Of a stretch of 64,000 nt of DNA, positions 1 to 54,502 are shown piece after piece. How positions within the stretch are numbered: position 1 is the stretch's first letter; each line of letters opens with the position of its first letter. The stretch comes from a virus: IMG/VR virus record IMGVR_UViG_3300042987_003796, positions 1 through 64,000 of that record, one strand, 5' to 3'. The notes under the pieces are model-generated. The model had not been told where the DNA came from. It did not search any database and was given only the letters and a program-made list of their open reading frames with translations. The translations under genes were made by a program, and so were the position numbers.

Positions 1-108
1 ACGCCAACTGCGACGCCAACTGCGACGCCAACTGCGACGCCAACTGCGACGCCAACTGCGACGCCAACTGCGACGCCAACTGCGACGCCAACTGCGACGC
101 CAACTTCC
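1..108 (+). repeat. 12-bp tandem repeat encoding Thr-Pro-Thr-Ala
   Basis: Eight perfect copies of acgccaactgcg run from 1 to 96, followed by a degenerate ninth. The unit is in frame and GC-rich compared with the surrounding AT-rich genome. A near-identical array ends the next gene at 1509-1580. Confidence 0.95.
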
Positions 109-384
109 CCAGATACTGACGGAGACGGGATACCAAACGATCAAGATCCCGATATTGACGGAGACGGGATACCGAATGGTCAAGATCCCGATATTGACGG
201 AGACGGGATACCGAATGGTCAAGATCCCGATATTGACGGAGACGGGATACCAAACGATCAAGATCCTTCGCCGTATGGTCCTACAATCGAAACAGAGACA
301 GAGACAGAGACAGAAACGGAGTCGGAAACGGAGGCGGTATTGAATCCTGGAACTATATTTGCTGTATATAGGAAATTTTTATGA
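1..384 (+). CDS. C-terminal part of a Pro-Thr/thrombospondin-type-3-repeat virion protein (5' truncated)
   Basis: The frame is open from base 1 to a TGA at 382-384; the start lies outside the window. It begins with a Thr-Pro-Thr-Ala repeat (about 32 residues). Four tandem 13-residue units of the form DxDGDGIPNxQDP follow, which is the calcium-binding pattern of thrombospondin type 3 repeats. The end is an acidic Glu-Thr run and a short hydrophobic tail. Such repeats form rigid calcium-stabilised stalks, so an extracellular virion adhesin or spacer is likely; this is inference. The stop overlaps the next ATG (ATGA), suggesting translational coupling. The catalytic or binding part, if any, is not visible. 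Confidence 0.75.
   Translation, partial: TPTATPTATPTATPTATPTATPTATPTATPTATPTSPDTDGDGIPNDQDPDIDGDGIPNGQDPDIDGDGIPNGQDPDIDGDGIPNDQDPSPYGPTIETETETETETESETEAVLNPGTIFAVYRKFL
115..270 (+). repeat. 39-bp tandem repeat encoding calcium-binding units
   Basis: Four consecutive 39-bp units (115-153, 154-192, 193-231, 232-270) encode the 13-residue DxDGDGIPNxQDP motif. The units differ at only a few bases, so the array probably expanded recently. Confidence 0.9.
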
Positions 385-4996: not shown

Positions 4997-5036
4997 GTTA
5001 AGCAATATTTAATTTAAAATATTAAAAAATTAATTA

Positions 5037-5071
5037 AACTGAAAGAGTCCTATCCTCTTTCAGTTTTTTTT
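5037..5071 (+). terminator. Rho-independent terminator after the first fibre block
   Basis: A perfect 11-bp stem (5037-5047 with 5055-5065) encloses a 7-nt loop, and the T run extends to 5071. It lies 40 nt after the fibre gene stop. Confidence 0.9.
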
Positions 5072-5222: not shown

Positions 5223-5762
5223 ATGGCAACAAAATTTAAATCTAAGTTATTTTATGGAAAAACAGGGTTTTTTGACTCTGTTGGTATTGGCGTATCTGAA
5301 CCTGAGAACGGATTACACATATCAGGCGCCGATTTTAAACTTGAAAGCGGGCAGGCTTATTTTCAATATAGACCGCTTATATCTGGTTCCCCAGTTATGT
5401 TATATGGCGATACTATAAGCGTGGATGTATCTGATTTATATCCACGTAATAATCCTAGCGGATTTATAACAGGAATTTCTAATTTAGTTTATACCACTGG
5501 AAATCAAAGCATTTCTGGTGTTAAAACATTTGTAGATAAAATATTACTATCTGATTTATCGCAATCGTCAGCAACTACAGGACAAATGCTGGCATGGAAT
5601 GGCAGCGCTTGGCAGCCAACAACTCCGGTTACTACTGGAACTGCAATTCAGAAAAACACATCAGACGTTACCCCGGTTAATTTTATACGCGTAATAACGC
5701 AGGCGGAATATGACGCATTGCCGATAAAAGATGAGAACACGATTTATTTTATTAAACAATAA
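5223..5762 (+). CDS. Tail fibre protein
   Basis: The 179-residue protein has a fibre-type N-terminus, a middle segment with the shaft motif NQSISGVKTF, and a C-terminal module RVITQAEYDALPIKDENTIY. That module resembles the [LI]TQAEYDAL...D..T[IL]Y element common at the ends of phage fibre and baseplate proteins. It probably assembles into a trimeric receptor-binding or adaptor fibre. Its stop overlaps the next ATG (TAATG), so translation of the GC-rich downstream gene is probably coupled to it. There is no Shine-Dalgarno. Confidence 0.7.
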   Translation: MATKFKSKLFYGKTGFFDSVGIGVSEPENGLHISGADFKLESGQAYFQYRPLISGSPVMLYGDTISVDVSDLYPRNNPSGFITGISNLVYTTGNQSISGVKTFVDKILLSDLSQSSATTGQMLAWNGSAWQPTTPVTTGTAIQKNTSDVTPVNFIRVITQAEYDALPIKDENTIYFIKQ

Positions 5763-6994
5763 TGCCAACCTTCATTAAAGCCTACCTTGGAGCGACCCCG
5801 TTATTTACATCAACAGCAACGGCGGGCTTTGCATCTATTGAGGGAACTGACGCAGGCGGCGGCGTTCAATCACTTGCAAATGAGTTTAAACACTCCGCTG
5901 GAACACTCACGATTTTTGGTAATGTAACCTCGACAAAGGACTTCCATCTTTGCGAGGGGAGTTCGACTGCGCCAGCGAATTGCGTGATTGCGGGAACGCT
6001 CACTCAAACTAATGCAGGGCCGCAGGGAGGGCCGCGAGGCTTTACTGTCGCCCAAAGTGCAGGACAGGTTGGAACGCTAACAATCAACGGCGCAACGATC
6101 TCGCTCTTTGCGGGCGCGATGATTGGAGACAATCAATCGACCGGCGCAGTCGGCGCGATCACTCTAAACAGTGGAACATTTGCAATGAACGGGGGCTTTT
6201 GGTTTTCGGGGCCGAGCAACACCTTCACCATGAATAATGGAACCGCGACGATGACAAATTGCTACATCGGCGGCGGTGGCAATGGAACGACCAATCCAAA
6301 TCCTGTTTCTGTCATTACCATCAACGGCGGCGTCTTCAACATTTCGCAACCCGTCGCCATAAATCAATCCAACATGATTTTTGGCGTAAGTACCGCCGGA
6401 ATCTCATCGACCAACACCGTAAACCTCAACGGCGGAACGCTAAAACATAATCACTTCTCCGCGAACACTCCCGCCTCGGGCCGGACGCAAGTGAACACGA
6501 TCAACTTCAATGGCGGCGTGCTGGAATTGGACAAAGGCGCAAGCCGCGCCTTCCCGCTAAACACGCCCGTTGGAGTGACTTGGAATCTCATCGTTAAAAA
6601 TGGCGGCGCAGTCATTTCAGTTGCCACCGGATTAACGATGACAATGGCCGTTGCGTTTTCAAATGATGGATCAAATGGAGGACTTACAAAAGTTGGAGCA
6701 GGAACGCTGGATATGGGTAGCCTTGCGCATTCCTACAATGGAACGACCGCGATTTCAGCAGGGATAATTAGACGCGCAGTAACATCTGGAGCATCGACTG
6801 GAACTGCAACATTCGGGGCATCTACCTTATCAGTTTCATTTAATGTTGCGCCACCATCTGGAACGACAACTTTCAAATTCTTCCCTGCCGCAACAACAAA
6901 TTCCTATGCCTCTGTAACCTTGACAGGAGTTTCCGCTGGAACGACCGCGACATATAATTCTGCAAATTCAACCCTTTCAGTTATTGCACCATGA
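5762..6994 (+). CDS. GC-rich adhesin with autotransporter-type beta-strand repeat
   Basis: This 410-residue protein is rich in Gly, Asn and Thr, with repeated short strands of the type GTLTING and ITLNSGTF that suggest a right-handed beta-helix. Residues about 306-337 match the autotransporter-associated beta-strand repeat (GGLTK.GAGTL followed by YNGTT..SAG). That repeat is common in bacterial surface proteins but unusual in phage fibres. Base composition breaks from its surroundings: 35 of 60 bases at 5941-6000 are G or C, against 19 of 60 at 8401-8460. Recent acquisition is likely. There is no signal peptide or autotransporter barrel, so the phage probably uses it as a fibre tip. It overlaps both neighbours. 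Confidence 0.7.
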   Translation: MPTFIKAYLGATPLFTSTATAGFASIEGTDAGGGVQSLANEFKHSAGTLTIFGNVTSTKDFHLCEGSSTAPANCVIAGTLTQTNAGPQGGPRGFTVAQSAGQVGTLTINGATISLFAGAMIGDNQSTGAVGAITLNSGTFAMNGGFWFSGPSNTFTMNNGTATMTNCYIGGGGNGTTNPNPVSVITINGGVFNISQPVAINQSNMIFGVSTAGISSTNTVNLNGGTLKHNHFSANTPASGRTQVNTINFNGGVLELDKGASRAFPLNTPVGVTWNLIVKNGGAVISVATGLTMTMAVAFSNDGSNGGLTKVGAGTLDMGSLAHSYNGTTAISAGIIRRAVTSGASTGTATFGASTLSVSFNVAPPSGTTTFKFFPAATTNSYASVTLTGVSAGTTATYNSANSTLSVIAP

Positions 6995-7287
6995 CAATTC
7001 CTCATAACGAAAATGGATGGGCGTATGATAATTCAATCGGAAACTGGAAACTTGTTTACGAAAGAAATCAAATTGTGATTTTCGAGCAAACCGATCAATG
7101 TATTGCCACGCAAAGTATTTTATTTGTAGGGACGAAGCAGGAATGCGAGCAAGAAATGATTCGCCTTGGATTGCCGCTTTCGGAATGGCAACAATCTTTT
7201 AATTCGCAGGATGACGAGCTAGACAGCCAGCAAAATACCCAGGATTCCGGCTTTGTATCGTGGTTTTCTAACTTATTTAATAAATAA
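6991..7287 (+). CDS. Small protein paired with the GC-rich adhesin; possible fibre assembly factor
   Basis: The family of this 98-residue protein is not recognised. It is hydrophilic and acidic in the middle, with an amphipathic Trp/Phe-containing C-terminus. It starts inside the stop of the adhesin (ATGA). Its composition is intermediate (25 of 60 bases at 7081-7140 are G or C). Small genes directly after a fibre gene often encode fibre chaperones or attachment proteins, and this is the best guess. Its coupling and composition suggest it arrived with the adhesin, or is adapting to the genome alongside it. Confidence 0.5.
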   Translation: MTIPHNENGWAYDNSIGNWKLVYERNQIVIFEQTDQCIATQSILFVGTKQECEQEMIRLGLPLSEWQQSFNSQDDELDSQQNTQDSGFVSWFSNLFNK

Positions 7288-7749: not shown

Positions 7750-8379
7750 ATGAGCTGCTCCTATTATGATGAGTTTATAAATTCTGTTTATGAAGAAATA
7801 GGCGAGGCTTCTGGATATTCTCATGAGTATTTAGCATATTGGTTTTCTGAAAATGCAAATTTAGCAAAATTAAATAATCTTATAGGAACTTGTTATTCAG
7901 CGTCTTATGTTACTGGCGAGTATGGTGAATTAATAAGTTATTCTATTAAACCGGAAATTAAAAAAGAAGAGCTGTCTGTTTATCAAAAAATATTTGAATT
8001 AGATTTTTATAATAAGCAAGCTAAAAATATAAATCGTGGACACTCTGCTTATGCTGCATCTAATTGGACTTCTTTAAAAGAAGGAAATTCTTCAATTTCA
8101 AGAATTAATAAGAGCGATATCGTAAAAAGCTATAAATCAATAGCTAAAAATTGCAAATCTGAACTAGATAAACTTGTTAAATCCTATCTTAAATTCAGGA
8201 GCGTTCCTCAGATGATCGTTGAGGATTCTTTAGACTATATAAAAATTGCTGATTTTTTCCCTTTGCCGACCTCTACTCCGGTACCGCAACCAGATAGCGA
8301 AGCAATTTATACTATGGGAGATTTTGGACAGCAGATGAAAACAATTAATGGCGAGCTATTGGGTTTGATTAAAAAATAA
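7750..8379 (+). CDS. Connector-type structural protein, copy A of a duplicated gene
   Basis: This 209-residue protein is clearly paralogous to the 184-residue product at 14504. Both begin MSC.Y, share GEA.GYS.EYLAYWF at about 20-33, and share SYVTGEYGE, the 14-residue string YQKIFELDFY plus flanks, and YLKFR.VPQ. Copy A has its own C-terminal extension with a Pro-rich linker and an amphipathic helix. The second copy stands directly before neck genes, so the family is probably a head-tail connector. Copy A, next to the collagen fibre, may have been retained as a fibre adaptor. The function is inferred from position only. Confidence 0.6.
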   Translation: MSCSYYDEFINSVYEEIGEASGYSHEYLAYWFSENANLAKLNNLIGTCYSASYVTGEYGELISYSIKPEIKKEELSVYQKIFELDFYNKQAKNINRGHSAYAASNWTSLKEGNSSISRINKSDIVKSYKSIAKNCKSELDKLVKSYLKFRSVPQMIVEDSLDYIKIADFFPLPTSTPVPQPDSEAIYTMGDFGQQMKTINGELLGLIKK

Positions 8380-8405: not shown

Positions 8406-10313
8406 ATGGCTACTTTTAAAGATTTTTTTCTTAATGATACTCCAACCAGTGGGGATTTTCTGGTTGGATATAGTCAAGATGGTTCTGCTGAATTTAGAAC
8501 AACAATAGAACAATTAGCGAACGCTATTCGTATTAGTGGCATAAACGGCGTAGATGGAAAAAGCGCTTATGAGCTTTGGCAGCTAGCTTCTCCAGCCAAT
8601 GTTGGAGACTTAAATGGATTCTTAAATAGTTTAATTGGAGTTGACGGAAAAGACGGGATTGATGGACAAGACGGGGCCGACGGTCAGGATGGGCTTGATG
8701 GAAGAGACGGGATTGATGGACAAGACGGGATTAATGGCAAAAGTGCTTATGAACTTTGGCAGCTGGTTTCTCCAGCTAATACTGGAGATTTGGCTGAATT
8801 TTTAAATACTTTGAAAGGCGACAAAGGCGATAAGGGTGATCATGGCGATCAAGGTGATAGCGCTTATAATTTATGGCTATTAGAAGATGGAAATGATGGA
8901 AAAACTGTAACTGAATTTTTAAATAGCTTAAAGGGTGAAAAGGGCGATACTGGAAGTATACCAAATATTACTACTAGTGACGTAACGGAAGGATCTAGAT
9001 TATATTTTACAAGCGAAAGAGCTTCTGGCGCCGCTCCTGTTCAATCTGTTAATGATAAAATCGGAAATGTGGCTATAGGTATAGATGATATTCCTAATTT
9101 GTCTGATGCTCTAAATAGCAAGCAACCAACTGGAAACTATGTCGAATTAGAAAATAATTATATTCCTTCTCGTTATATTCCTGGCTCGGTTGATCAAATT
9201 GAGGAATTTTCAAGTTTTAGTGAATTGCAATTAAACATTGGATCTTCTAATGTTTTATATGTTACGACTGATAATAATAAGGTTTATAGATGGGGCGGTA
9301 CAGTTTATGTAGAAATAGTTGCTTCGCCAGGTACCACAACAGAGATTTTAGAGGGAAACAACTTGTATTTTACAAGCGAAAGAGCTAGGTTAGCTGCTCC
9401 TGTTCAATCGGTAGCTAACAGAACGGGAGATATCTCATTGATGGTTTCAGATATAACTGGTTTGAGCGATAGTTTAATATCCTCTAATGTGACGAGTTCT
9501 GAAATCGTAGCTAAACTTCCATTGGGGGTAAACGTTGGTATATATAAAAACGATTCAATCATACCTAAAGATACCCCTTTTGAAACTATTTTGCAAAATA
9601 TGTTGATAACTAGGGTTGCTTATAGTTATAAAGCGCCAACTTTATCGGTTGATTATCAGGGTTTAAATCCTGCGGCAACATACGAAGTTGGCGATACTAT
9701 AAGTTTTAATATTAATCCAACATATACTAAAAACGACGGTGGAAACTTAATAGACTTCACATATTCAAGGGCTGGTTCGTCTTTGGGAACTGGTAGTTCA
9801 TACTCGGTATCTGCGTATAAAATCGTATCAAATACTACATTTCAGGTTTCTGCAAATTACAGCGACGGTCCAATATATAATGATAATTTGGGTAATCCAG
9901 ATAATAATAACATTAAAGCTGGCACGTTGACAGCAACAAAAACAGTAAATGTTTTATATCCATATTTTTATGGAAAATCTACTACTCAGCCAACCGTTGA
10001 TAGCATAGCCGCTACTATACAAGCTGGAAACGCTACAAAAGTAATAGCCGATGCAAATGGTACAGTTTCAATAACATACAATGCAAACGCTGAGTATATT
10101 TGGTTTGCTCACCTTGCTTCTCAAACAACTAAAAAAAAGTGGTACAATACTGTTAATAACAACGGAGATATAGGCTCTGGGACAGTTTTGCAAGCTCCAG
10201 CTACGAAGTATATAAATTCACCAAGCTCAAATTGGACAAATATAGAATATAAAATATACATAGGAGCATTTGCTACTAAAACAGAAGGGGTTTTCGAACT
10301 TAGAAATTCTTGA
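8406..10313 (+). CDS. Collagen-like tail fibre
   Basis: The 635-residue protein has two Gly-X-Y tracts. About residues 78-112 are GxDGxDG units and about 138-152 are GDKGDKGDHGDQGD-type units, giving collagen-like triple-helix stems. Between and around them the module K-S-A-Y-E-L-W-Q...GDL..FLN.L recurs three times with variation. Next come two copies of a shaft module containing LYFTSERA followed by APVQSV. The C-terminal 250 residues form beta-rich sequence typical of a fibre tip. Trimeric fibre architecture follows from the collagen repeats. It probably binds a host receptor; the receptor is unknown. Confidence 0.85.
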   Translation: MATFKDFFLNDTPTSGDFLVGYSQDGSAEFRTTIEQLANAIRISGINGVDGKSAYELWQLASPANVGDLNGFLNSLIGVDGKDGIDGQDGADGQDGLDGRDGIDGQDGINGKSAYELWQLVSPANTGDLAEFLNTLKGDKGDKGDHGDQGDSAYNLWLLEDGNDGKTVTEFLNSLKGEKGDTGSIPNITTSDVTEGSRLYFTSERASGAAPVQSVNDKIGNVAIGIDDIPNLSDALNSKQPTGNYVELENNYIPSRYIPGSVDQIEEFSSFSELQLNIGSSNVLYVTTDNNKVYRWGGTVYVEIVASPGTTTEILEGNNLYFTSERARLAAPVQSVANRTGDISLMVSDITGLSDSLISSNVTSSEIVAKLPLGVNVGIYKNDSIIPKDTPFETILQNMLITRVAYSYKAPTLSVDYQGLNPAATYEVGDTISFNINPTYTKNDGGNLIDFTYSRAGSSLGTGSSYSVSAYKIVSNTTFQVSANYSDGPIYNDNLGNPDNNNIKAGTLTATKTVNVLYPYFYGKSTTQPTVDSIAATIQAGNATKVIADANGTVSITYNANAEYIWFAHLASQTTKKKWYNTVNNNGDIGSGTVLQAPATKYINSPSSNWTNIEYKIYIGAFATKTEGVFELRNS

Positions 10314-10314
10314 A

Positions 10315-12282
10315 ATGGCTATTACACTTAATGATAATTTGCAGGTACAGGCTAATAAAAATATTGATAACCGATATGGTCCATATAATAGCTTAACGCA
10401 GGCATTAACCTCCATAGCTGCTTTTCAAAGGTCAAGAGGTTTAACTGTTGGCGTTATAGAAGAGGGCTTGTTGAAAGAATATTGGTTTAAAGATGGTGTA
10501 TCCGATGCTGATTTAGTGGAAAAAAATTCAGTTAGTAAAAATTCAGTTAGTATTATTTCAAAAACTTATACAGAATTAAAAACACTAAAAGATAATTCTC
10601 AACTAATTGCGGGTCAAACTTATAAAATAACAGATTTCCAACTTAAATGGTGGAACCTTAGCATTAATGATAACACGGTCAAAACAAGCGCATATGTTGA
10701 GCCGTTAAATATTACAGCTATTGCAAATAATAAATTTTCAAACATAGCTAGTTCAGATTTATATCCACAAGATATATTATATTATGATTTTGAAGCCACC
10801 ACCTCCAGAAGTTGGGGGGGTGGTGATTCTGCTCTTAATTCGTCTCCAATTACAAATTTTAAAGGAGATATATACAGAAGAATTGATCCAATAACAGATA
10901 TTGATATTTGCTATGATTGGAGACATATAACAGTTAATTGTTGCAGACCAGATTTATCTTCAATTATAACATGGACATCTTCATTAACTGCTAAATTATA
11001 TGATGTTGTTAAATTAAACGGCAAGTTATTCATATCTATACTTGATAATAATATATATCCAACAACCAACAGCTATGCTTGGCAACCTTTCTCTGATTAT
11101 AATGAAGAATACACTTACTTTCCCACCGATGAATCTTTTGGATTGTCTATACTCAGACCACCTACAAATATTACTGATATCAACACGTTTTACAATTATG
11201 TAAATTATAATTCAAATGCTTATATTTTAAATGTGCCAGCACTCGCCTCCACAAGAGTACAAAAATATACTTTTAATAATAGTACCGAAAGCATTGGAAG
11301 TCGAGAATTTAATGGAACTAGCATAAAATTAGGTGTTGGTTCGCATAGTAATATATTTTGTGGTTATAATAAGTATATAGATCTTGGCTATGAAGCCAGA
11401 TATAATATATTCCATTATAATAATAGTAACATTTTTGCGGTTTCTAATTTTTCACAAAACATTATTAGTAATACAGTTCAAAATAATTCTTTTGGATCAA
11501 CCGTGAAATTAAACGTATTCTCATCTCAATTTATTAATAATAAATTTTTAGATACTATTGTTTATAATAAATTTAGTTTTAGACAATCAGGAAATGTATT
11601 TGATAGTCAGGTAGCTGGTAATTTTTTTAGTAGCGGTATGGATAGTAATAAGTTTGGGAGTACTGTTATAGGAAATCTAACAAGACCTTCATTTAATTTA
11701 AGTAATCTTGGCCCAGTGTATTGCGGCAACAGTTTTGGTTCATACTCTGGCGGTAACATAACACTAGGAAATTGCGTTAATAATAGTTCGTTGGATCAAG
11801 TTGCAGGAAATACTTTAGGTCCCGGGTTCGTAAACAATAAATTAGGAAATTTTCAAAAAAACGAAATAGGTCCGGGATGTATCAATAATATTTTTCCTTA
11901 TTATAGTTCTGCAAACAAAATCGGAAATGGATTTGAAGGCAATACAGCAACTCCTACTTCGAGTGCAACAGGGTATATGTATTATAATACAATTGGTCAA
12001 GAATTTCAATATAATGTTATTGGAGACAATTTTAAAATAAACGAAATAGGAACAAGAATGACAGGATGTACATTAGGAAATGTATTTAGAAAAAACAAAA
12101 TAGCTAGCGGAGATTATACATATGATTATGGCTCTCAAATGTTAAACGGTGTTGATTTTAGAACCGCTACCCATGTTGCGAACAATTATTATAAAACTAT
12201 TTTTCATAACTCCGCAGGACAAGCAAGACTAAGTTATTATAACGAAAATGATCAATTAATTATAACAGATATAACAGCATAA
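10315..12282 (+). CDS. Beta-helical fibre/tailspike-like protein, paralogue 1
   Basis: I chose the ATG at 10315, just after the previous stop, over an upstream ATG inside the previous gene; this gives 655 residues. Near residue 80 is the module SKTYTELKTLKDNSQL then YKITDFQLKWW. About residues 330-600 are dense in short units of the type GNxFxxN and N.IG..F..N, as in parallel beta-helices. The C-terminus ends with NSAGQARLSYYN. The next gene repeats both ends and the helix. A DNA block of 69 nt is identical between them. Role: receptor binding or glycan-acting spike; no catalytic motif is recognised. Confidence 0.65.
   Translation: MAITLNDNLQVQANKNIDNRYGPYNSLTQALTSIAAFQRSRGLTVGVIEEGLLKEYWFKDGVSDADLVEKNSVSKNSVSIISKTYTELKTLKDNSQLIAGQTYKITDFQLKWWNLSINDNTVKTSAYVEPLNITAIANNKFSNIASSDLYPQDILYYDFEATTSRSWGGGDSALNSSPITNFKGDIYRRIDPITDIDICYDWRHITVNCCRPDLSSIITWTSSLTAKLYDVVKLNGKLFISILDNNIYPTTNSYAWQPFSDYNEEYTYFPTDESFGLSILRPPTNITDINTFYNYVNYNSNAYILNVPALASTRVQKYTFNNSTESIGSREFNGTSIKLGVGSHSNIFCGYNKYIDLGYEARYNIFHYNNSNIFAVSNFSQNIISNTVQNNSFGSTVKLNVFSSQFINNKFLDTIVYNKFSFRQSGNVFDSQVAGNFFSSGMDSNKFGSTVIGNLTRPSFNLSNLGPVYCGNSFGSYSGGNITLGNCVNNSSLDQVAGNTLGPGFVNNKLGNFQKNEIGPGCINNIFPYYSSANKIGNGFEGNTATPTSSATGYMYYNTIGQEFQYNVIGDNFKINEIGTRMTGCTLGNVFRKNKIASGDYTYDYGSQMLNGVDFRTATHVANNYYKTIFHNSAGQARLSYYNENDQLIITDITA
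10729..10797 (+). repeat. 69-bp direct repeat, copy 1
   Basis: This block is base-for-base identical to 12497-12565 and lies at the same place in the two tandem fibre paralogues. The surrounding sequence is diverged, so the identity suggests recent gene conversion or a recombination hotspot. Confidence 0.9.
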
Positions 12283-12283
12283 T

Positions 12284-13891
12284 ATGGCTACAATTACTAC
12301 TACAGTCAATACAATTTCAAAAACTTATGCGCAATTAAAAACTTTGCGAGAATCTTCTTCTTTAACACCAGGACAATATTATAAGATAACAGATTTCCAG
12401 ACAAAATGGTGGAATCAAGCAACGCAACAAACTGGTGGGTATTTTGTCTTAACTAGCTCGGTGGTAGAACCCTTAAACGTTTTAGCAGTGGCTACGAATA
12501 AATTTTCAAACATAGCTAGTTCAGATTTATATCCACAAGATATATTATATTATGATTTTGAAGCCGTTACGAATTATGGTATGTTATATGGAACAGGCAT
12601 ATCAAACTTTAAAGGTTGGATCACAAGGAGAATAGATAGCAATAAAAATATAGATGTTTCTTTAGATTGGAGACATATAACCGTTAATTGTTGTAGACCA
12701 GATTTATCAAGTATTCCTACATGGTCTTCAACTACTACATACAATCTTTGGAGTGTAGTAAAAGTTAATAATAAATTATATTATTCGTTACAAAACAATA
12801 ATATAAACAACAATCCAGTTCCCAATCCCTCATATATAAATACGCCTACTGTTTATTGGAGGCCAATATCAGGATTTCGAGAAGGATTAACATACTTTCC
12901 TACTGATGAGCTTTTTGGTTTTTATGCTAATAAACCAGATGGGTCATATCTTGTTAACTTACCTGCTGATTCTGCTACTAGAACTCAAAAATATATGTTT
13001 GGGGTAGATGCAGAATCTGGTAATAATGCAAATTCTTTAGATGGTTATTCGAACATTACAATTCAAGGGACAGGTTGTTGGGGTAATATATTTTGCGGTG
13101 GAGGCAAGCAATTAAAGTTCGGCTCAAACTGTTATTTAAATTTACTAGCATATATGGAATCCAATATAGCAGGAGATAATTTTAGATTAAATATATTATC
13201 TAGTAACGCGAACAATAAATTTGGAGATGGGTTTGAAAATAACAGATCAACTATAGACACTGTGCATCCATCTTTTTCATTTTCAGAAAATGTGTTTATT
13301 ACTAATACCACCAATAATATTTTTCTTGGTGGAACTGTTGGCAATATTTTTGATGTATCTACTTCTTACAACCATTTTGGACCTGTTACCAGAGGAAATA
13401 AAATAGGTAGTAATTGTTTTAGCAATTTTTTTCCTCATTATCAAACAAGATATAATACACTCGCTCCTTTTTTTAATAATAATTTTATAGATTCTAATGC
13501 GGGTTTTGAAGGGAATGTGACATTAGGATCATGTCTCAGGAATATATTTAGCGGCAGTGCGGGAGATAATTTAATTGGGAATAATTTTAGAGATAATATT
13601 ATTGGTAGTGATTTTATTAAAAATCAAATTGCAGCTAATTTTATTTTCAATACAATAGGCAATTATTTTAATTGCAATATTATAGGAGACTTTAACGCCT
13701 ATAACACTATAGGACACTATTTTAGGAGAAATAATGTAAGTGCTGGGGCTATTGGGAATACTAACTTCACATCATCCACTTTAGTATATAATAATTACGA
13801 TAAAACAATATTTCTAAACTCCGCAGGACAAGCGAGATTAAGTTATTACAATTCTTCGGACGTGCAAGTAGTAACTTCGCCAACAGCTTAA
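12284..13891 (+). CDS. Beta-helical fibre/tailspike-like protein, paralogue 2
   Basis: This 535-residue tandem duplicate of the preceding gene lacks its first 75 or so residues, the part that could attach the spike to the virion. It opens directly with the SKTYAQLKTLRESSSL / YKITDFQTKWW module. It then has the shared DWRHITVNCCRPDLSSI segment and a helix of N.IG..F..N units at about 280-500. The end is NSAGQARLSYYN plus a variable tail. The pair may co-assemble, or may be alternative tips exchanged by recombination. It is only 1 nt from the previous stop and lacks a Shine-Dalgarno. Confidence 0.65.
   Translation: MATITTTVNTISKTYAQLKTLRESSSLTPGQYYKITDFQTKWWNQATQQTGGYFVLTSSVVEPLNVLAVATNKFSNIASSDLYPQDILYYDFEAVTNYGMLYGTGISNFKGWITRRIDSNKNIDVSLDWRHITVNCCRPDLSSIPTWSSTTTYNLWSVVKVNNKLYYSLQNNNINNNPVPNPSYINTPTVYWRPISGFREGLTYFPTDELFGFYANKPDGSYLVNLPADSATRTQKYMFGVDAESGNNANSLDGYSNITIQGTGCWGNIFCGGGKQLKFGSNCYLNLLAYMESNIAGDNFRLNILSSNANNKFGDGFENNRSTIDTVHPSFSFSENVFITNTTNNIFLGGTVGNIFDVSTSYNHFGPVTRGNKIGSNCFSNFFPHYQTRYNTLAPFFNNNFIDSNAGFEGNVTLGSCLRNIFSGSAGDNLIGNNFRDNIIGSDFIKNQIAANFIFNTIGNYFNCNIIGDFNAYNTIGHYFRRNNVSAGAIGNTNFTSSTLVYNNYDKTIFLNSAGQARLSYYNSSDVQVVTSPTA
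12497..12565 (+). repeat. 69-bp direct repeat, copy 2
   Basis: This block is identical to 10729-10797. The bases immediately outside differ on both sides. Confidence 0.9.
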
Positions 13892-14503: not shown

Positions 14504-15058
14504 ATGAGCTGTGTTTATTTTAACGATTTTATTAGATCTGTTCATGAGGAGATAGGTGAGGCTGCAGGATATTCTTATGAATATTTGGCGTACTGGTTTG
14601 CTGGAAACTATAATCTTGGCAGACTGAATACTCTTATTGATACATGCTTTTCTGGTTCATATGTAACGGGGGAGTATGGGGAGATGACAAGTTATGCTAT
14701 AACTCCAGAAATGCATTCTGAAGAAACAGCTATTTATCAAAAAATATTTGAATTAGATTTTTATAGTAAAATGGCTAGAAATACTTTGCGTGAAATATCC
14801 AGCGGTGGAGCAGACTGGATATCTTTGAGGGAGGGCGATTCCTCTATTACTAAAATAAACAAAAATGAAGTCGCAAAGAATTATAGGTCGCTTTCCCAAG
14901 ATGCTAAATTAGAACTAGATAAAATGGTGGACTCTTATCTTAAATTTAGGGCTGTGCCTCAGCAGGTTGTTGGAGATGATGCTGTTGAAGGTGGATATTA
15001 TGTTGGTCCTGGTTCATCTTATGATACTTATAGAGGAAATAGGGAAAACTTATTATAA
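14504..15058 (+). CDS. Connector-type structural protein, copy B
   Basis: This 184-residue paralogue of the 7750 product shares the GEA.GYS.EYLAYWF, SYVTGEYGE and YQKIFELDFY blocks. Its C-terminus is different: Gly/Tyr-rich and lacking the extension of copy A. It starts the run of neck genes and overlaps the next gene by one base (TAATG), so it is probably the original copy acting in head-tail joining. No enzymatic motif is visible. Confidence 0.6.
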   Translation: MSCVYFNDFIRSVHEEIGEAAGYSYEYLAYWFAGNYNLGRLNTLIDTCFSGSYVTGEYGEMTSYAITPEMHSEETAIYQKIFELDFYSKMARNTLREISSGGADWISLREGDSSITKINKNEVAKNYRSLSQDAKLELDKMVDSYLKFRAVPQQVVGDDAVEGGYYVGPGSSYDTYRGNRENLL

Positions 15059-20744: not shown

Positions 20745-23700
20745 ATGGCTGATAATTTGACTACGGCAACAATTGATGTAAGAGCAAACACAAGGGGCTT
20801 AGAAAAAGATATTCTAAAAGCTCTTAAAACCGTTGAATTTTCTGAGATAAATACAAAGAAAAGTTCGCAGGCTCTTGGTAGAATAACTGGACAGGTTTCT
20901 GAATTTAATAAAAGCCTGGAAGCGTCTAATGCTCGCGTAGTTGCTTTCGGTGCGTCTGCTGGGGCTATTTTTGCTGTCGAAAAAGCTTTTTCAAGCTTAA
21001 TTTCTTCTACGATAGAGGTGCAGAAAAAACTTACAGATGTAAATATTCTTCTTAATTTATCTTCCTCTGGTTTGCAAAAATTTGGAGATAGCTTATTTGA
21101 TATAGCTAAAAATACAGCTCAGTCTTTTTCTACTGTTGCAGACGCCGCTACCGAGCTTTCTCGTCAGGGTCTTGGCGTTGAAGAGACATTAAAAAGAACA
21201 AATGCCGCGTTAGTTTTGACTAGACTCAGCGGACTTGATGCAAAATCTAGCGTTGATGCGTTGACCGCTACATTAAACTCTTTTGCTGGGTCTGCGCTTG
21301 ATGCGGTAGAGGTAGTTAATAAATTAGCAAACGTTGACGCCGCTTTTGCTGTTAGTTCTGCTGATCTTGCCAATGCTATTAGTCGCGTTGGTTCTACTGC
21401 TGTTGATGCTGGGGTATCCTTAGATGAATTAATTGCTTTAGTTACTTCTGCTCAACAAACTACGGCGAGAGGTGGAGCTGTAATTGGTAACTCTTTTAAA
21501 ACTATTTTTACGCGTTTGCAAAGAGGAAAAGTTCAAGATTTGCTTGGCTCTCTTGGGGTCGATACAACAGAAGGACAAAGTGCGATAAGTTTATTACAAC
21601 AACTTGCGGCAACTTATGATACTCTTGGAGCGGCTCAAAAATCTTACGTTGCAGAGCAGGTTGGTGGCGTTTTCCAAATCAACATTTTAAAAGCAGCTTT
21701 ATCTGATTTGGGTAAGGAGTATAGTATTTTTGGAAGAGCTTTAGATACTTCATTAAGCTCAACAGATGAAGCTATTAGAAGAAATGAACTTTTAAATCAA
21801 ACTATTTCTGCCTTATCTAGTCAAGCCGTTTCTGGATTGCAGCAGGCGGCGAGCAAAATCGGCTCTATTGTTTTTGAACCTAACGCAAAGGGTTTTCTTT
21901 CTGGTTTTAATAATTTATTAGATTCTTTTAATAATATAGATGCAGAAAGCGCTGGTGGAAAGTTAATGACTGGATTTTTTAAGGGTATTGGTGACTTTAT
22001 ATCTGGTCCTGGAGCAGTTTTAGCTACCGCTGTTCTTGTAAAATTATTTTCCAATTTAGCAAAATTTGCAGCTGGGTCAGCAAAAGAATTACTTGGAACT
22101 AATAAAGCTGCACAACAACAGGCTGCTATAGAGCAAAGTATTTTAAGTATACTTCAAAAGAATAGTCAATTTACTAGTCAGATCTTGAGTGGTAAAATGA
22201 CAACAGTTCAGGCAGAAAAGGAATTATTGACTTATTTAACTGCTCAATCAAATATCCTTAGGGAGCAGGAAAGATTAAGCAAAATTATTGGTGCAAATTT
22301 GATGACAGCTGGAGTTAGTATTGGGTCAAGTGGTATTCCAATTGTAGCTGCATCAAAAGGTAAAAAGGCTGCTTCATCTGGATTTATACCAAACTTTGCA
22401 TCAGATCAGGCGATTGGTCAGGCGATGGAGAATGCTGGAGCTAGACAGCATGGATACAAAGCTGGAAAAGCTAAAAAAACAACTATTCATGATGGTAATG
22501 GAAAATCATTCAAATCTTTTGTTAATAGCAAAGAGGATGTAAAAACTTTTACTAATTCCGCTGGCAAGAAAGCTACAATAGTTCGTCCTCCAAATGGGTT
22601 TGGTGAAAATACTCAATATGCTGCTGGTGGATTTGTTCCTAATTTTGCAAAAAATAAAAATGAAGATTCGATAAGAAAAGGTGTGTTGTTTGAAAAACGT
22701 TTGAATAAAGCCCTTAGTGGATCTGCCTCGTTTTCTCCTAATGCTCCAATGGATTTTCCTCTCCCAACTGGTTATGGAAATGACTATGAGATAAGAAGAA
22801 AAATTGGAATTAGTGATGCTTCTATATATGGAGATGCAAAGCTTACTAGAAGTAGAAAAAGCGAACAGAGTTTATTAGACAAATATTTAAGAACGCCAGA
22901 GGGAGTTAAGGATTTTCTTTCAGCAAAAGAAACTTCTAGAGGGTTTATTAATTTAAATCCGAATGGATTATCAATGTTGTTTTCTGGGTCTGGATCTGAT
23001 TCAAGGGGCATATCTTATATTTCCAGTATAAATACTCAGCTTTCTGCTGGCGCAAAACGTTTGATTAGTTCAAGATTTGGTAAAAATCATAAAAAAAGCA
23101 GAACATTGGCAATGCCTTATATTGCTGATAAAATAAACGAAAAAAATTTATCTGGATTAAGTTCTGGTTTTATTCCTAATTTTGGAAAAATGCAAGATCT
23201 TTATAAAAATACGAAGATGCGCGAAGGAAAGGATGATCCTTTTGGCAAAAGAGCTGCTAAGGCTAATTTAGCAGCTAAAAAGGGTATTCCAATTAAAGAT
23301 CTTGGAAACTTGCCATATACAATGATTCACCCTGGTGGTGGTAGTAATTTTCAAGCCTCTGCTAGTTATACTAAAAAAGATAAAAAAACAAATTCTTCAA
23401 CTCAATATGTTGGAAAAATATGGACTGCTGGATTAGATGCAAGCAAGTTAAATCGTAAAACTGTTCAAGATAGAGTTGGAGATGCGCTAGTTACAGAAGC
23501 AAATAATTTAACAAAAATTTTCAATCCTTCTGGGAGTGGGCAATTTAGTAACTATAGTCAGTTGTCAAATACCGGATCTGTATTTAGTGCAGCTGGCACT
23601 GTTTTTGAGTCAGCGGTCAGAAAAGCGTTTAATGTTTCTGCTCAAGGTCAAGGAGATAGGATAGATTTTCCAAATCCATCCTCTGAGCTTAGATCTTTCT

Positions 23701-26700
23701 TTGGAAATGCTCCAGGACCTTATGAGGCAAAAATTTCAAATGACGATACAAATAGGTCAAGTACTCTTTCTAAGTGGATAGCTGTAAATGGATTAAGTGG
23801 TGGATTTATTCCTAGCTTTGCTAATTCTAAGAATAGGCTGTCATTTTCTTATAAGGATAAAGATGAATTTGGAATTAGTGAAATTGAAGCTATAATGAGC
23901 GGTAAAAAAGTTGGTTCATTTAGTTATGCGGAAGATAGACCCGGAATAGTAGATGTTGGAGACCTTACAGTTAATAAAGGAGAAAGAGGAAAGGGTATAG
24001 GGAGCGCGCTTTATAAAGAAGCAATAAAAAGAAACGCCGGCAAAAAAATGAAGGGGCAATTATTGCCACAGATGAATCGCTTATTAGAGAAAATAAAAAA
24101 AGGCGAACCCGTTTCTGCTGAGACCTTATACCCACAAATAAAGAGAGCCGATCTTGCTAAAAGTTCTGTTTTTGAGGTTTATGGGCATAAGGGTTTAGAA
24201 GCAGAAAAAATGACGCGTGATCAGTTTACGTCATTTGTTAATGCAAAAATTACGGAATTAAAAAAAGACCCGAAAAGATTGCAAAGCTATTTTGGAAATG
24301 TAGAAGCTGACGAGTATGGCGGACTTGGAGTGGATTTACAAACTCAACATTCTTCTGGATTTATTCCTAATTTTGCAAGCGGAATAATAACTGGAGACGT
24401 CATTCGGGGAAATGAATATAAAAGCGTTTTAGATTTTCTTGCAAAAACAAATAAACCTGTTAGAACTATTATTGGTCCGTCTGGCTCTGGAAAAACAACA
24501 ATGGCTTCGAAAAGTGGCGGCTCTATTGTTAAGTCATTTAACGATTTAGCGGGATTTGATAGTTATATTCTTGATAGAGCTACGATGTCTATGCCAAAAG
24601 ACGAAATAGTTTCAGAAAATTTAAAAAAGATATTTCGTAAATCTGGAGAAAGCGGCGCTTTAGATTTATTGGTTGGCTCTAGAAATACTATAAAATCTTT
24701 ACGCGAAAAAAGGGCAAAAGAAGGAGACTCTTTAATTCCGGATAGAAAACAATTTACTTCTGGAAGTGGAGGTATTTCATCTTTTGTAAAGGGCGCTAGG
24801 GAATTTGCGTCTGAATATCCAGGAGCTTCTGTTTCTAGAATATTTAAAGATAAGTCTGAATATAAAACAAAAAAAATATTATCAGGGGGGTTTGTTCCCA
24901 ACTTTGCTTCTCCAAAATTAATAGAAGCTATAAATAAAAGAATTAAAAATCCAAACGTTGCCCAAAAGTTAAAAGAGGGAGCTGGCTTGAATGATTCTGC
25001 TTATATGAAAGCCGCGAGTAAGCTTGGAATAGATGTTGCTGGACTAGAGGCATTCCTGCCTCAGATGGGTTTTCCTTTGCGTGGAAAAGATAAGGTATTA
25101 AACTTATCAAAAGCTATTGGTTTTGGTTTTGGTAGATCTTTCATTATAGACGCTCTTAAGATGGGGGATTGGAATTATGTTAAGCCTCAATTTGAATCCG
25201 CTGGCTATGTGAAAGATGACTTTGATAAGTTATCTAAATATGCAAAAACGCCAAAAGGCGAATCTGCCTTAAAATGGTGGAGGTCTAAATCTAGCGGGTT
25301 TATTCCAAATTTTGCTTCTCCAAAGAAAAGCGGAAAGACTTTTAATAGTTACATGAGTAAGCCTTTATCTGATACTATCAGATTCGTGCATCCTCTTAAG
25401 CCAGTTATTGATTCAAGTGGTAATATATCTTTTCCTGGGCTTCCTAAAAAGGGCGCTAAAGCTACAATCATTCATGGGGAGGCAATGGCTGGGCAGGAAA
25501 GAATGACTCTCGATGAGTTTTATGCGCTTGCTGAAAAAAGAAAGAACGATCCAAGATTCTGGGGTAGAAACTCTTTTGAGTATGTATATAATTCAGGAGG
25601 ATTTGTTCCTAATTTTGCTGACGCATTAAATAATGCAATAGCTAGAGAAAAGTCTTCTGGGTTGTCTAATAGTCAGATATATGTTGACCAGCATAGCTCT
25701 TTAAAGAATAAAAATAACCCAATGGGTTTAATGGTTGCTAATACTAGGGATGAGCCAGGCGGTGGAATTCAGGGCATTAAAAGAGCTAAGAAAGAGGGAA
25801 AGAATCCAAAAACTTATGGAACATCTTTTGGGTATGTGCCTAATTTTGCAACTGGACCGATACAACCGTCTCAAGATTACTTGAATGCCTTGAATGAGGC
25901 TGTTAAGGCGGTAGATAAGCTATCGCAAAGTTCTAAAAAAGCATCTGAGGGTTTAAATCGAGCTTCTGATAGTGTTGAGAAATTTGATAACGGAGCTTCT
26001 GGGTCTGGCAAGGGAAAAATGGGTAAGATTGGTGGATTCCTTAAAGATAATGCTTTAACTGTAGGTTTTGGTTTGCAGTCTATAGCTAGTATGGCTGGTG
26101 AATACGCTGGAAATGACGATACTAAATCTGGTCGCGCAATTAAGGCTGGAGCAGGCGCGGTTGGAGATATTGCTAGTTTTACAGGAACTGGGGCTATGAT
26201 TGCTGGACCTTGGGGGGCTGCTGCTGGTTTCGCTGTAGGATTAGGAAAAGCTGCGCTTGATTTGTCAAAAGCCTTAACTACTAAAGTTCCAGATATGGAA
26301 AAAGCTCTTCAGACTAGCTCTGATGCAATGAATAGATTTGGTGAATCTGGTCAAAAGCTATTGCAACTTAATGAGCAATATGGTGACGCGTTAAATTCTG
26401 GAAATCCTGGTCAGGCTGCTGATATAATGGTTAAAACTCAAAAGGCGTATGCGGAAGAGTTAAGTAAATTAACTCAAGCTCAAAGAGATTCATTTATTTC
26501 AGCAGTTGCTCAGGGTAAGGGGCAAGAAGAATATGCAAAAATCCTTGGCGAAATGCAGGATTCTGTTAGAGCCTCTGAGTCGGCTTTGTCTTTGCAAAAA
26601 TTTAGTGAGAGCAAGGGCTTTTTTGGTGGACCTGATAAAAAACTTATATCTGGAATAGATAAAACTTTAGTTTCTGATTTGACAAAGGGTCTTGACGCAG

Positions 26701-29700
26701 ATGCGATTAAAAAAGCTTTAGAAAATGCTTCCCCTGTTCTTACTGATAAGAGCGCGGGAACAGAAAATCAAGCTATTGCATTAATGAAAAGCCTAGCTCA
26801 GTCAGAGAGTCTTACAGTAGATCAAAAAGCTAATTTTGAAAAGATTATTGATTCTTTTGCTTCTGCGGCGGCGCAAACAGATTTAGGAGCAGTTTCTGAG
26901 GCTTTCGTTGAAGGAATTCAGTTAAAGCCTAAATCATTTGAAGATGTTCAAAAAGCTCAAGAGGCGTATAAAAAATCCCAAGAAATAAACAATGCAAAAA
27001 TAAAAGAAGAGATTGCTATTAGAGAAAAAGCAAATGCTTCTTTATTGCAGCTTCAATCTGAAACGGAAGCTATATATACTAGCTTCAATGATTCTCTTGA
27101 AAGATTTATTTCTAGTGTTGAAACAGCCGCAAAAATGCGAGCTGCGTCAGTAGAGTTCAAGCAAGAATTTTATTCTGAAGGCGGAGTTCCAAGCGCCGCT
27201 GAGTCGCAAAAAGAAAAAAATATAGTTCAGGCTTCGAGGGATAATTTGACGGTTGATATTTATAAATCTCAAGTTGAGGCTTCTAATAATTTTAATTCCG
27301 CTGTTAAGGATTTAGTTGGAGGTCTTGATATTGACATAGCAAAGCTTGGCGTCGGCGGTCAGTCGATGGATCAGCAGAATCAGCTGCTTGGCGTACAGTC
27401 TTCTATACAGAAAGCATTGTTGCCAATTCAGGGGATGATATTAAAGGGAGACTATGAAGGGGCAAGACAAAAAACAAGCGAGGCTCTTTCTGGATTAAAG
27501 CCAGAAGAAGTTAGTGCGGTTGGCGTTGACGCGATAACAAAAGTTGGTCAGCAATTAGATCAAACATTGCAGGATAGCGCTAGGAAATTAGATCAGATTA
27601 AACAAAATTCACAAAAAGATCTTGCTATTCAAGCTCAGCAATTAGTTTTTCAAAGAGCTATGTCTAAACTTAGTCAAGCTCAAGGCTTTGGTGGAACAGA
27701 CATAAAAGGTTTAATTACAGATAATGGAGGAGAGTCATTTCAGCAGGCTATTTCTTCTTTGAAAGATCTAAAAACGTTGGGATATAATCAAAAAGATTTG
27801 CAAAAGGGGTACGTAAAGGGCGGTGGAGCTGAAACATATGGAATAAAAGATAAAAAAGCTAATGCTGCGATGAGCGGAAAAGTTATTGATTTTTATGGAG
27901 CTGCCAGTAAAATAATCGGAAGTCCTGTTTTGTCTACCCAATCTAAGGATTTTGGCGCTTTAGCTCAAGCGGTCTCAGACCAGATAAGAAACCAGATGGA
28001 TAAGTTCAAGGCTGCTGGAGAAGGCGTTGTTGACCCTGCTGTTTTTAGTAGAATGGAAAAAGCTCTTGCCACATTAGGTGGGGGAGATATGGTTGCTCAG
28101 TTAAAAATATTTAAAAATATTGGAGTTGCAGATGTTGGTGGAAAGCAAGTAATGGATGAAGCTTTAAAAACTTATAGCGGTGGTCAGTTTGCAAATTTGA
28201 GCCCAGAGCTTAAGAAGGCATTTGAAAGCACTACAGATGAAGGGGCTGCTGCTACTTTATTATTAGTCGCTGTACAAGATAAGCAAACCCAAAGTCTAAA
28301 TACAGGATTTAATTTTTTATCTGGCATTGGAGGGCAAACAAATGACTTATTGTCAAAACAACCGGACGCAATCGCTGCAGCAATAGGAGCGGTTTTAGAA
28401 AAAGGTAGAGCCGATTCTGAGGCGCAAAAAGTTAATCGAGAAGCTGCGTCGCTAGACAAGCAGTTCTTTGATAGTAAGGCTAAACTGAAAGAAGCTAATA
28501 AAGGCGTCGATTCAGCTCAAGCCCAAGTTGATTCTATTGTTGAATCTTTAGGTGGAAATGCTAGTGGATCATCTATTGAGGATTTTATTAAATCCATGCA
28601 GGTTAGTCAAAAAGATAAAGATAAGGCTAAGTCTATAACGTCTTTAGGTAGGAATGAATATATTAATTATAAAACATCGCTGGAGATGACTCCAACAGAA
28701 ATATTGTCAGGGTTACCAACTCCAAGGAGCGACAAAGCCAAACAAGAGTCGGCAAAAAAATATGACGAAGCTGTGGCTCTTCAAGAAAAAGTAAAAAAAC
28801 TTGATGCATTGAAAGCCGCATCTCAGCAGGTTAGTAGTAAAAAATCTGAAGCTGTAGGTATTTCTAATGAAATAAAAGAAATCAATAAAAAATATGATGC
28901 GCTTGCGCCAGATATTCAAGCTAAAAACGATGCCGCAAAAAAGGCTTCTGAAGTTGCTGCGCAAAGCAGAAATCTAGTTCTTGATAAGAAGCCATTGCAG
29001 GATTCTATGGATTATTACGCAAATGATAAAAAAGCTAGAGAGGCTGCTTTAGCTCAATCTTTGGCGACAGAAAATCTCAAAAAAACAAAACAGCAAAAAC
29101 AAACTCTAGATAGAACGTCTGGGGCAGAAAAGGCTATGAGCCCTACTGGAAAGCTAGATACTTATGAAAATATAGCGATTACTAAAGCTGGCGGCGCAAA
29201 CCAAGCTGCTTTCCAAGATTTATTGTCTCAAATGGTTGTGCCGAGTTTTGATAAATTTAAAGATGTTTATGCGTCTCTTGGAGAAGAGGGTGGAGCAAAA
29301 GGCGCTTACGAAAGAACCATAAATGAAATGATTGGACCAGCTCTTTCCCAAAAGCTGCCAATTGTAGAATCTGGATCTCAAGGTCAGCAAATAGCTTCTG
29401 CTATTACAGAGGGCATTAAGCAAGCTTCCGCCTCAGTGGTTGGTGGAGGCATTACACGCGAAGAAAATAAATCGTTGATGAGCAAACATGGGTATGTTGA
29501 AGGAGAGGGTTGGAAAAATGAAAGCGGTAAGGCGGCTTATTCTGAAGAACTTAAAATGTTAAAAGAACAAAAGCAAGCTCAGCAGCAGTTGTCTTCACAG
29601 ACTAGCGCAAATAATTTACAAAAAAATGCAGAGCAAGAGCAGGCGAAAAAACAAGAAAGCGAGAAAGCTAAAGCTCAATCTGCTCAGCAAGATCCTACTC

Positions 29701-39470: not shown

Positions 39471-40709
39471 TTATAATTGTCCGGATATTTGTTCGCACCA
39501 CCCCTTAGAAGATGAATGAGGCCAAACTACCCATTTTTTAGGTAAGGTTTCGGTATTGAACTCTCTCCATATTTTACAGTATTTGTCAGGATCTCTCATC
39601 ATTCTTGAGATTTCTGCTTTATCTGCGTCTTTTCTAAAGACTGTTTCTCCTTTTTCGTCATGGAAAGCTACAACCCAGAACTCGTAATCTTTTTCTGGAA
39701 CTTGACTGTATTGAATATCTATGCAATGTTTAAATATTTTTAAAAATGATTTTTCATAGTCTTCTTCATTTTCATAAGAAGGGTTAGGAGGATAGTTTTT
39801 ATCTAAAGTAAACTTTTGAACAGCCCTCCTTTTAAAGGAGATGCCAGCATATCTTTCATAATCTTGAAGAGTTCTTTCTTTTCCAAATCCATATGTTCCA
39901 AAATCTATATTTTCTGTGTTCTTTTCCATTCCGAAAAGAATGCGGTTTCTTTTATGGCATTTGGAGTTTGCTTCCCACCATTGTTTGTGGTCATCCCAAT
40001 GTTTTGTTCTGCCTTTTCTTGTATACTCGTGCCACGCTATGATTTTATGTGGATGAAAAAGATCGTATCCATGAGTATATGCCCTGACAGCTATTGATAT
40101 TTCCTCTCCGTGAAAATAATATTCTGGATCGTGCTGAACGTCCTTGCAAAAGGAGCCGTCTGCAAAGCAAAAGTGAGCAGAATAAAATCTTGATTTAACT
40201 GGCTCATTTAAGTCTTTAAAATTAGGAATTGAGGCGGGTAGAAAAAAAACTATGCCTTCTGGCGTGAATCTGTCAAAGTCCATTCTCCACGGGACTTTTT
40301 CTCTTCCATTTGGGTCGTTGTCTGGATCAAAGCTTGATATGTATCCAGTAAGAAGAGGTTTCTTATATCCTTTTGTTCGAAGTTTTTCAATCATCGAGAT
40401 TAATTCTTCGTCCCAATTTTCTACGAATCTATGATGACTATCTAATTGAAGAGTATAAGTTTCGTTATTATATTCTTGCTGTATTTTATTTCTTGCCCAG
40501 CAAGCTCCTTTTGACTCTTTATAGGGTATGTCAAGAATTTTAAATCTTGAATCATTTTTATATTTATCTAAATTTTCATTTTCGCCGTGTTGCCAAGCAA
40601 TACAAAATCTTAAATTTTCTGGATGTTTTGCATTTTTTATGCAATCATCTAGAGTTGGAATTAATTGAGGATCTTTGTATGAGGCTATTTGAATAAATAT
40701 AGTAGACAT
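39471..40709 (-). CDS. GT60-like glycosyltransferase (GlcNAc type)
   Basis: This 412-residue protein has an N-terminus IFIQIASYKDPQLIPTLDDC and a motif QLDSHHRF with Asp90-Ser-His92. Both match the GlcNAc-transferase family GT60, in which DSH replaces the usual DxD metal site. FHGEEISIAVRAYTHGYDLF then HPHKIIAWHEY supports this. The family uses UDP-sugars to glycosylate proteins, and homologues occur in large marine phages. Possible targets are the phage fibres or host surface. It is the last of three minus-strand genes and is transcribed towards the late genes. Confidence 0.8.
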   Translation of the reverse strand: MSTIFIQIASYKDPQLIPTLDDCIKNAKHPENLRFCIAWQHGENENLDKYKNDSRFKILDIPYKESKGACWARNKIQQEYNNETYTLQLDSHHRFVENWDEELISMIEKLRTKGYKKPLLTGYISSFDPDNDPNGREKVPWRMDFDRFTPEGIVFFLPASIPNFKDLNEPVKSRFYSAHFCFADGSFCKDVQHDPEYYFHGEEISIAVRAYTHGYDLFHPHKIIAWHEYTRKGRTKHWDDHKQWWEANSKCHKRNRILFGMEKNTENIDFGTYGFGKERTLQDYERYAGISFKRRAVQKFTLDKNYPPNPSYENEEDYEKSFLKIFKHCIDIQYSQVPEKDYEFWVVAFHDEKGETVFRKDADKAEISRMMRDPDKYCKIWREFNTETLPKKWVVWPHSSSKGWCEQISGQL

Positions 40710-52547: not shown

Positions 52548-52548
52548 T

Positions 52549-53685: not shown

Positions 53686-53712
53686 AATAAAAAATTAAAT
53701 TATTATATATAA

Positions 53713-54489: not shown

Positions 54490-54502
54490 TTTTAATTAAA
54501 AA

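What the first reader, a model, noticed from the sequence alone, without database searches (positions are those of the whole stretch)
5762..7287. GC-rich adhesin cassette with bacterial autotransporter repeat
Composition jumps at the ATG of the 5762 gene (35/60 G+C in one line against 19/60 in a typical phage line) and falls back by 7290. The encoded beta-strand repeat (residues about 306-337) is common in bacterial surface proteins. The cassette is joined by ATGA and TAATG overlaps, so it was fitted precisely between phage genes. This looks like capture of a host adhesin as a new fibre tip and may hint at the host lineage.
Basis: partly seen in the sequence, partly recalled or inferred. Interest (0 to 1): 0.7.

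Follow-up and report, generated by a model that had tools for sequence, protein, structure and literature searches.

The report
Swapped-in phage tail-tip cassette
A gene for the tip of a virus's tail fibre has been pieced together from parts of other bacterial viruses, using a three-gene cassette that recurs in dozens of uncultured phages, rather than being stolen from a bacterial host.

Summary
The foreign composition is concentrated in the gene's body: third-position G+C is 0.56 at 5849-6682, where this phage's codon usage predicts 0.25 (z=12.7). It starts inside the upstream gene and ends inside the 5762 gene; the C-terminal 75 codons are near native (z=1.0).

The gene encodes a beta-solenoid protein with one PATR repeat (6683-6766). 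Its close relatives (56-85% identity) are all in uncultured phage contigs. None was found in 84,980 prokaryote genomes, plasmids or isolated phages.

It belongs to a recurrent, apparently undescribed three-gene cassette. A fibre gene often ending in the Phage_tail_C motif is followed by a PATR-containing tip with a variable body and conserved C-terminal ~100 residues, then a small protein (about 60-105 residues) without a database family. The small gene overlaps the tip gene by exactly 4 bases in 76 of 77 copies, in contigs of 32-61% G+C.

The window gene is a mosaic. Its body matches a GC-rich phage contig (L006) up to base 6764, the end of the PATR repeat; the C-terminus matches other phages. 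So: phage-to-phage module exchange, not host adhesin capture; host lineage cannot be inferred. Receptor binding and the small protein's chaperone/cap role are inferred.

The parts
5223..5762 (+). Fibre gene that precedes the tip: native AT-rich N-terminal part, probably grafted C-terminal part ending in the Phage_tail_C (tail tip) motif ITQAEYDALPIKDENTIYFIKQ
   Evidence: PF24243 E=4e-12 at residues 155-178. GC3 is native at 5223-5582 (z=-0.9) and raised at 5583-5759 (z=2.8). DNA homology to L006 and L007 starts at 5652.
5760..5764 (+). TAATG stop/start overlap coupling fibre gene and tip gene
   Evidence: Sequence. The same 1-base overlap occurs in L002, L003 and L006; most of the family uses a 4-base ATGA overlap here.
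5762..6994 (+). Tip protein, 410 aa: N-terminal stretch MPTFIKAYLGATPLF, beta-solenoid body, PATR repeat, C-terminal beta domain
   Evidence: AlphaFold2 model, mean pLDDT 84.6, pTM 0.86, all beta. Relatives L002-L007, L014, L015. PATR in 61 of 61 complete tips.
5849..6682 (+). Foreign GC-rich body of the tip gene, closest to a GC-rich phage contig (L006)
   Evidence: GC3 z=12.7; of four codon usages tried L006's fits best. Nucleotide identity to L006 0.82-0.90 over 5927-6649.
6683..6766 (+). PATR (PF12951) repeat, where the mosaic switches partner
   Evidence: PATR 30.7 bits at exactly 6683-6766. The blastn match to L006 ends at 6764.
6767..6991 (+). Conserved C-terminal domain (about 75 residues), near-native composition, shared with tips of unrelated bodies
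   Evidence: GC3 z=1.0. Matches L002-L004 (0.76-0.85 nt over 6788-6973) but not L006 (0.41-0.52). pLDDT 93-98 in this part.
6991..7287 (+). Small conserved partner protein, 98 aa, of no known family; ordered core residues 1-65 (to about 7185), variable low-confidence tail
   Evidence: 77 IMG/VR loci, none in 50,697 phage records, no significant PHROG. Model: five strands and a helix, pLDDT about 90 in the core.

Best explanation
The segment from about 5640 to 7185 is a receptor-binding tip cassette of tailed phages that moves between unrelated phages by recombination. The upstream gene supplies the fibre shaft and ends in a short tip-attachment motif (PF24243). The 410-aa protein is the distal tip: a beta-solenoid whose body is the receptor-binding surface, closed by a PATR repeat plus a conserved C-terminal beta domain. 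The small downstream gene, overlapping the tip gene, encodes a protein that probably helps the C-terminal domain fold or caps it, comparable to a tail-fibre chaperone. Swaps use the conserved ends as landing sites: the fibre-end/ATG joint on the left, and the PATR/C-terminal domain (or the small gene) on the right. In this phage the present body came from a GC-richer phage related to L006, while the C-terminus has another history. Shown: the cassette, its recurrence, the mosaic and the foreign body. Inferred: location at the physical tip, receptor binding, chaperone role, direction of transfer.
For: All relatives are phage loci beside fibre genes. In L005 the tip is fused in frame to a collagen-like fibre (1,122 aa in total), which links it physically to a fibre. 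PF24243 is at the end of the preceding gene in 22 of 35 loci. PATR occurs in 61 of 61 tips. The tip/small-gene overlap is 4 bases in 76 of 77. Flanks outside the cassette share almost nothing with the window. Mosaic: identity to L006 is 0.82-0.90 over 5927-6649 and 0.41-0.52 after 6788, where L002-L004 stand at 0.76-0.85; GC3 changes at the same place. The same swap shows in other pairs: 16 with bodies at least 75% but C-termini at most 60% identical, and 20 the other way round. Across 53 cassettes, C-terminal distances track small-protein distances (r=0.78), body distances much less (r=0.22), and body against upstream end not at all (r=0.05).
Against: No experiment on any member. Foldseek against solved structures gave only weak solenoid or tailspike-like matches (best E 0.25). 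L004 and L005 lack the small gene directly after this tip, so it is not strictly needed in that position; L005 has one elsewhere on the contig, L004 has none on its 10-kb fragment. The C-terminus/small-protein correlation could come from physical linkage alone. All records are metagenome contigs of unknown completeness.
Confidence: 0.77

Rival explanations
1. Direct capture of a host surface adhesin (autotransporter passenger) by this phage.
For: PATR is an autotransporter passenger repeat. The predicted fold is a beta-solenoid like passengers, and weak fold matches include pertactin and PfbA. The body is foreign in composition.
Against: No relative in 84,980 genomes by two pattern-based scans nor in 72,556 plasmids. 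The closest relatives are eight phage contigs with the tip next to phage fibre genes. No autotransporter barrel. Body codon usage fits a phage contig. The scans only reach fairly close relatives.
Confidence: 0.07
2. The PATR tip family entered phages from bacterial autotransporters once, long ago, and has since circulated among phages; the present event is only the latest exchange. This is compatible with the best explanation.
For: PATR as a motif is found in bacteria (two of 14 control genomes), and PATR plus a C-terminal folding-type domain resembles the passenger/autochaperone layout described in PMC5767081.
Against: No intermediate found. PATR is short (30 positions), so convergence or the reverse direction is possible.
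Confidence: 0.35
3. The high G+C reflects protein composition (Gly, Ala, Thr-rich) rather than transfer.
For: First- and second-position G+C are raised (0.47 and 0.57), as a Gly/Ala/Thr-rich protein requires.
Against: GC3 conditioned on the amino acids is 0.56 against 0.25 expected (z=12.7), while the C-terminal part of the same protein is near native (z=1.0). The L015 homologue in a 32% G+C contig has GC3 0.23.
Confidence: 0.03
4. The small downstream protein is not a chaperone but a structural component, for example the extreme tip, or a protein that merely travels with the tip.
For: No sequence match to any known tail-fibre chaperone family; fold match only to uncharacterised viral proteins (best E 1e-4).
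Against: Position directly after the tip, overlap in 76 of 77 and co-variation with the C-terminal domain are what a dedicated folding partner would show, but they do not exclude a structural subunit.
Confidence: 0.35

Closest known systems
Shared tail fibre + chaperone modules of Alteromonas phages A5, V22 and P24 (PMC10579305)
   Same: A host-recognition module with a fibre gene followed by a partner gene, shared by distantly related phages; conservation is highest in the fibre C-terminus.
   Different: Sequence relation was not tested directly. Here the tip has PATR, is a separate ORF overlapping the shaft gene, and the partner protein is small with no known family. The A5/V22 module was tested by binding assays; this one was not.
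Type Va autotransporter passengers with C-terminal autochaperone domain (PMC5767081) and PATR repeats
   Same: Predicted beta-solenoid, PATR near the C-end, followed by a conserved folding-type domain.
   Different: No barrel translocator; encoded in phage tail clusters; no significant structural match to a passenger or autochaperone.
Phage_tail_C tail tip domain proteins (PF24243)
   Same: The upstream gene ends in this motif above the curated cut-off, as do many relatives.
   Different: In this cassette the motif is at once followed by a separate, overlapping tip gene.
Lambda stf/tfa, T4 37/38 and Mu S/U fibre-assembly pairs (from general knowledge)
   Same: Distal fibre gene followed by a small assembly or adhesin gene; region known for horizontal exchange.
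   Different: No significant PHROG or Pfam match of the small protein to those families.

Membership tests
Type Va autotransporter | PATR (PF12951) repeat in the passenger | tested here: met
   30.7 bits at 6683-6766, above the cut-off of 27; 25.6 bits in the whole-protein scan
Type Va autotransporter | C-terminal outer-membrane beta-barrel translocator | tested here: not met
   No autotransporter barrel domain in Pfam; the protein ends after a short beta domain
Type Va autotransporter | N-terminal Sec signal peptide | not tested
   No signal-peptide predictor run; the N-terminus MPTFIKAYLGATPLF directly follows a fibre gene and is replaced by the fibre in L005
Phage tail-fibre tip / receptor-binding protein | Encoded in the tail-fibre cluster and joined to a fibre shaft in a relative | tested here: met
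   In-frame fusion to a collagen-like fibre in L005; fibre-type upstream genes
Phage tail-fibre tip / receptor-binding protein | Binds a host receptor | not testable with these tools
   Needs binding or plaque assays
Phage tail-fibre tip / receptor-binding protein | Homotrimeric assembly typical of fibres and tailspikes | not testable with these tools
   Only single chains could be modelled
Phage_tail_C (PF24243), upstream gene | Sequence match above curated cut-off | tested here: met
   45.6 bits against a cut-off of 23.7
Known tail-fibre chaperone families (Tfa, gp38, gp57A types) | Sequence match of the small protein | tested here: not met
   No Pfam match and no significant PHROG for 40 members
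Known tail-fibre chaperone families (Tfa, gp38, gp57A types) | Needed for fibre folding or remains as cap | not testable with these tools
   Needs co-expression experiment

The most novel reading that the evidence does not exclude
The small protein and the PATR plus C-terminal domain form an undescribed dedicated chaperone/cap pair that lets almost any beta-solenoid body be exchanged as a receptor-binding tip among phages of 32-61% G+C, with the PATR repeat serving as the standard recombination joint.
Probability: 0.35. Interest if true: 0.65.

Novelty: new variant of a known kind. Interest (0 to 1): 0.45.

Why it matters
Exchange of fibre tips is a main route by which phages may change hosts, but modular tip systems have mostly been described in a few isolates. 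This one has a constant frame (fibre-end motif, PATR plus C-terminal domain, partner gene) and a free body, is common in uncultured phages and was not found in the isolate collection. That makes it a tractable model for how tips are swapped between phages with very different genomes, and a warning that foreign composition in a fibre gene does not indicate the host.

Tried and rejected
Host adhesin capture: rejected for this event (searches found no bacterial, plasmid or isolate relative; eight phage-contig relatives found). Composition as an amino-acid effect: rejected. Identification by solved structures: sequence profile gave no real hit; Foldseek against PDB weak for both proteins. Small protein against PHROGs, isolate phages and viral fold library: only uncharacterised relatives. 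The upstream gene as query returned only one weak locus. A strict regular expression for the position of the last PATR matched only 25 of 61 tips; 18 of those 25 lie 97-105 residues from the C-end. Paper searches for PATR in phages found nothing relevant. Assembly chimera was considered: L003 matches the window without a break from 5688 to 7148, so an independent contig supports the same gene order.

Full report
What was checked. The window lies in an 84,021-base virus record. The two ORFs and their overlaps are as described. The gene 5762-6994 is 50.9% G+C against 33.5% for the rest of the window, and its GC3 is 6.3 SD above the other ORFs of at least 100 codons.

Where the anomaly really lies. 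Conditioning GC3 on the amino acids and this phage's own codon usage, the upstream gene is native to 5582 (z=-0.9), raised at 5583-5759 (z=2.8), strongly foreign at 5849-6682 (0.56 against 0.25, z=12.7), and near native again at 6767-6991 (z=1.0). The small ORF is mildly raised (z about 2.3) and the next gene is native (0.3). The highest z among 179 other segments of the window is 4.5. So the block is not a two-gene insert with edges at 5762 and 7290. It starts in the fibre gene upstream and its strong part ends inside the 410-aa gene.

What it is related to. Eight IMG/VR contigs encode relatives at 56-85% identity. Two pattern-based scans of 84,980 prokaryote species genomes found none, nor did tblastn of 50,697 phage records or 72,556 plasmids. 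The genome scans reach only fairly close relatives, so a distant bacterial ancestor is not excluded. Contig G+C ranges from 32% (L015) to 60% (L006); the tip's GC3 follows its genome in L015 (0.23) but stands out in L007 (0.46 against 0.22-0.33 for neighbours) and in the window. Outside the cassette, the window and these contigs share almost nothing.

A recurrent cassette. The small protein led to 77 viral loci. In 76 of 77 usable copies (window included) its start overlaps the stop of the gene before it by exactly four bases; in L006 by one. That preceding gene contains PATR in all 61 complete examples and ends in a conserved domain (...FRFFQGxTTxxYASVTLxGVPVGTTATYxSAxSTLxVxVP or variants). 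It starts in most cases with a four-base or one-base overlap with a further gene upstream (51 of 59), whose end carries PF24243 in 22 of 35 tested. Two main kinds of tip N-terminus occur: MILTDSTAAxVG and MPTFIKAYLGTTPLF, the window having the second. In L005 the tip is fused in frame to a collagen-like fibre of 1,122 residues in total. The same contig has a second tip with small gene upstream, and the contig of L036 carries two small genes.

Mosaic. Along the tip gene, L006 is at 0.82-0.90 nucleotide identity over 5927-6649, then falls to 0.41-0.52 after 6788, where L002-L004 stand at 0.76-0.85. The blastn match to L006 ends at 6764; the PATR repeat is at 6683-6766. GC3 changes in the same place. 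The same kind of discordance appears among other members: 16 pairs with similar bodies and different C-termini (four of them involving L006), 20 pairs the other way. Distances of the C-terminal domain and the small protein go together (r=0.78), body and small protein little (0.22), body and upstream end not at all (0.05). Linkage alone could produce part of this.

Structure. The tip model is an all-beta solenoid with a C-terminal beta domain (mean pLDDT 84.6, pTM 0.86; N-terminal 12 residues undefined). PDB matches are weak and of the general solenoid kind: tailspikes, pertactin, PfbA. The small protein has a confident core of five strands and one helix and a disordered tail; its only good fold match is an uncharacterised protein of an uncultured phage (E 1e-4).

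How it most likely works. The fibre shaft ends at the PF24243 motif; the tip, made from the overlapping gene, attaches there and presents the solenoid body to the cell; PATR and the C-terminal domain close the solenoid and help folding, much as the autochaperone region of autotransporter passengers does (PMC5767081); the small protein assists or caps this domain, as chaperones do in the Alteromonas phage modules (PMC10579305). The gene anatomy is shown; attachment, binding and the folding roles are inferred. Recombination between conserved ends lets the body change without breaking either joint. The body now in this phage most likely came from a GC-richer phage; the direction of transfer rests on composition.

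Verdict. Observation partly confirmed. Interpretation partly supported: foreign tip yes, host adhesin no. New variant of a known kind (mobile fibre-tip modules), with an apparently undescribed partner protein that deserves a test.

Noticed in passing
window 7750-8379 and 14504-15058: Two paralogous genes (60% identity over 159 aa) bracket the fibre genes 8406-13891, suggesting duplication of a fibre-region unit.
   Followed up: partly
window 10270-12282 and 12284-13891: Two adjacent large paralogues (41% identity) rich in short N/G-type repeats, probably two fibre or spike proteins side by side.
   Followed up: partly
window 1-266 and 1507-1586: Perfect 12-base repeat (ACGCCAACTGCG, 8.8 copies) at the very start, a 39-base repeat at 112-266, and a similar 12-base repeat at the end of the protease-like gene; the first is cut by the record's end.
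   Followed up: no
window 51693-55642, also 39471-40709 and 43920-45011: Sugar-nucleotide and glycosyltransferase genes (RmlD-like, C-methyltransferase, GDP-mannose 4,6-dehydratase, GlcNAc transferase): possible glycan modification by the phage.
   Followed up: no
window 20745-30008: A 3,087-aa tape-measure-type protein (PF10145) with many copies of a GFIPNFA motif spaced through its middle.
   Followed up: no
L004:1346-1380 and L005:7230-7265: After the tip gene the small ORF is absent; the overlapping ATG opens only a 9-codon frame (MIWLRNFNK). L005 has another tip with small ORF upstream, so the small protein might act in trans.
   Followed up: partly
L015:5278-7167: In a 32% G+C phage contig the same body follows further PATR repeats in one 630-aa protein with native GC3, an alternative architecture of the tip.
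   Followed up: partly
window 5036-5066: Hairpin of 12 pairs followed by a T-run just upstream of the fibre gene at 5223, a possible terminator isolating the fibre/tip/small-gene unit; the scan finds such sites no more often than in shuffles.
   Followed up: no
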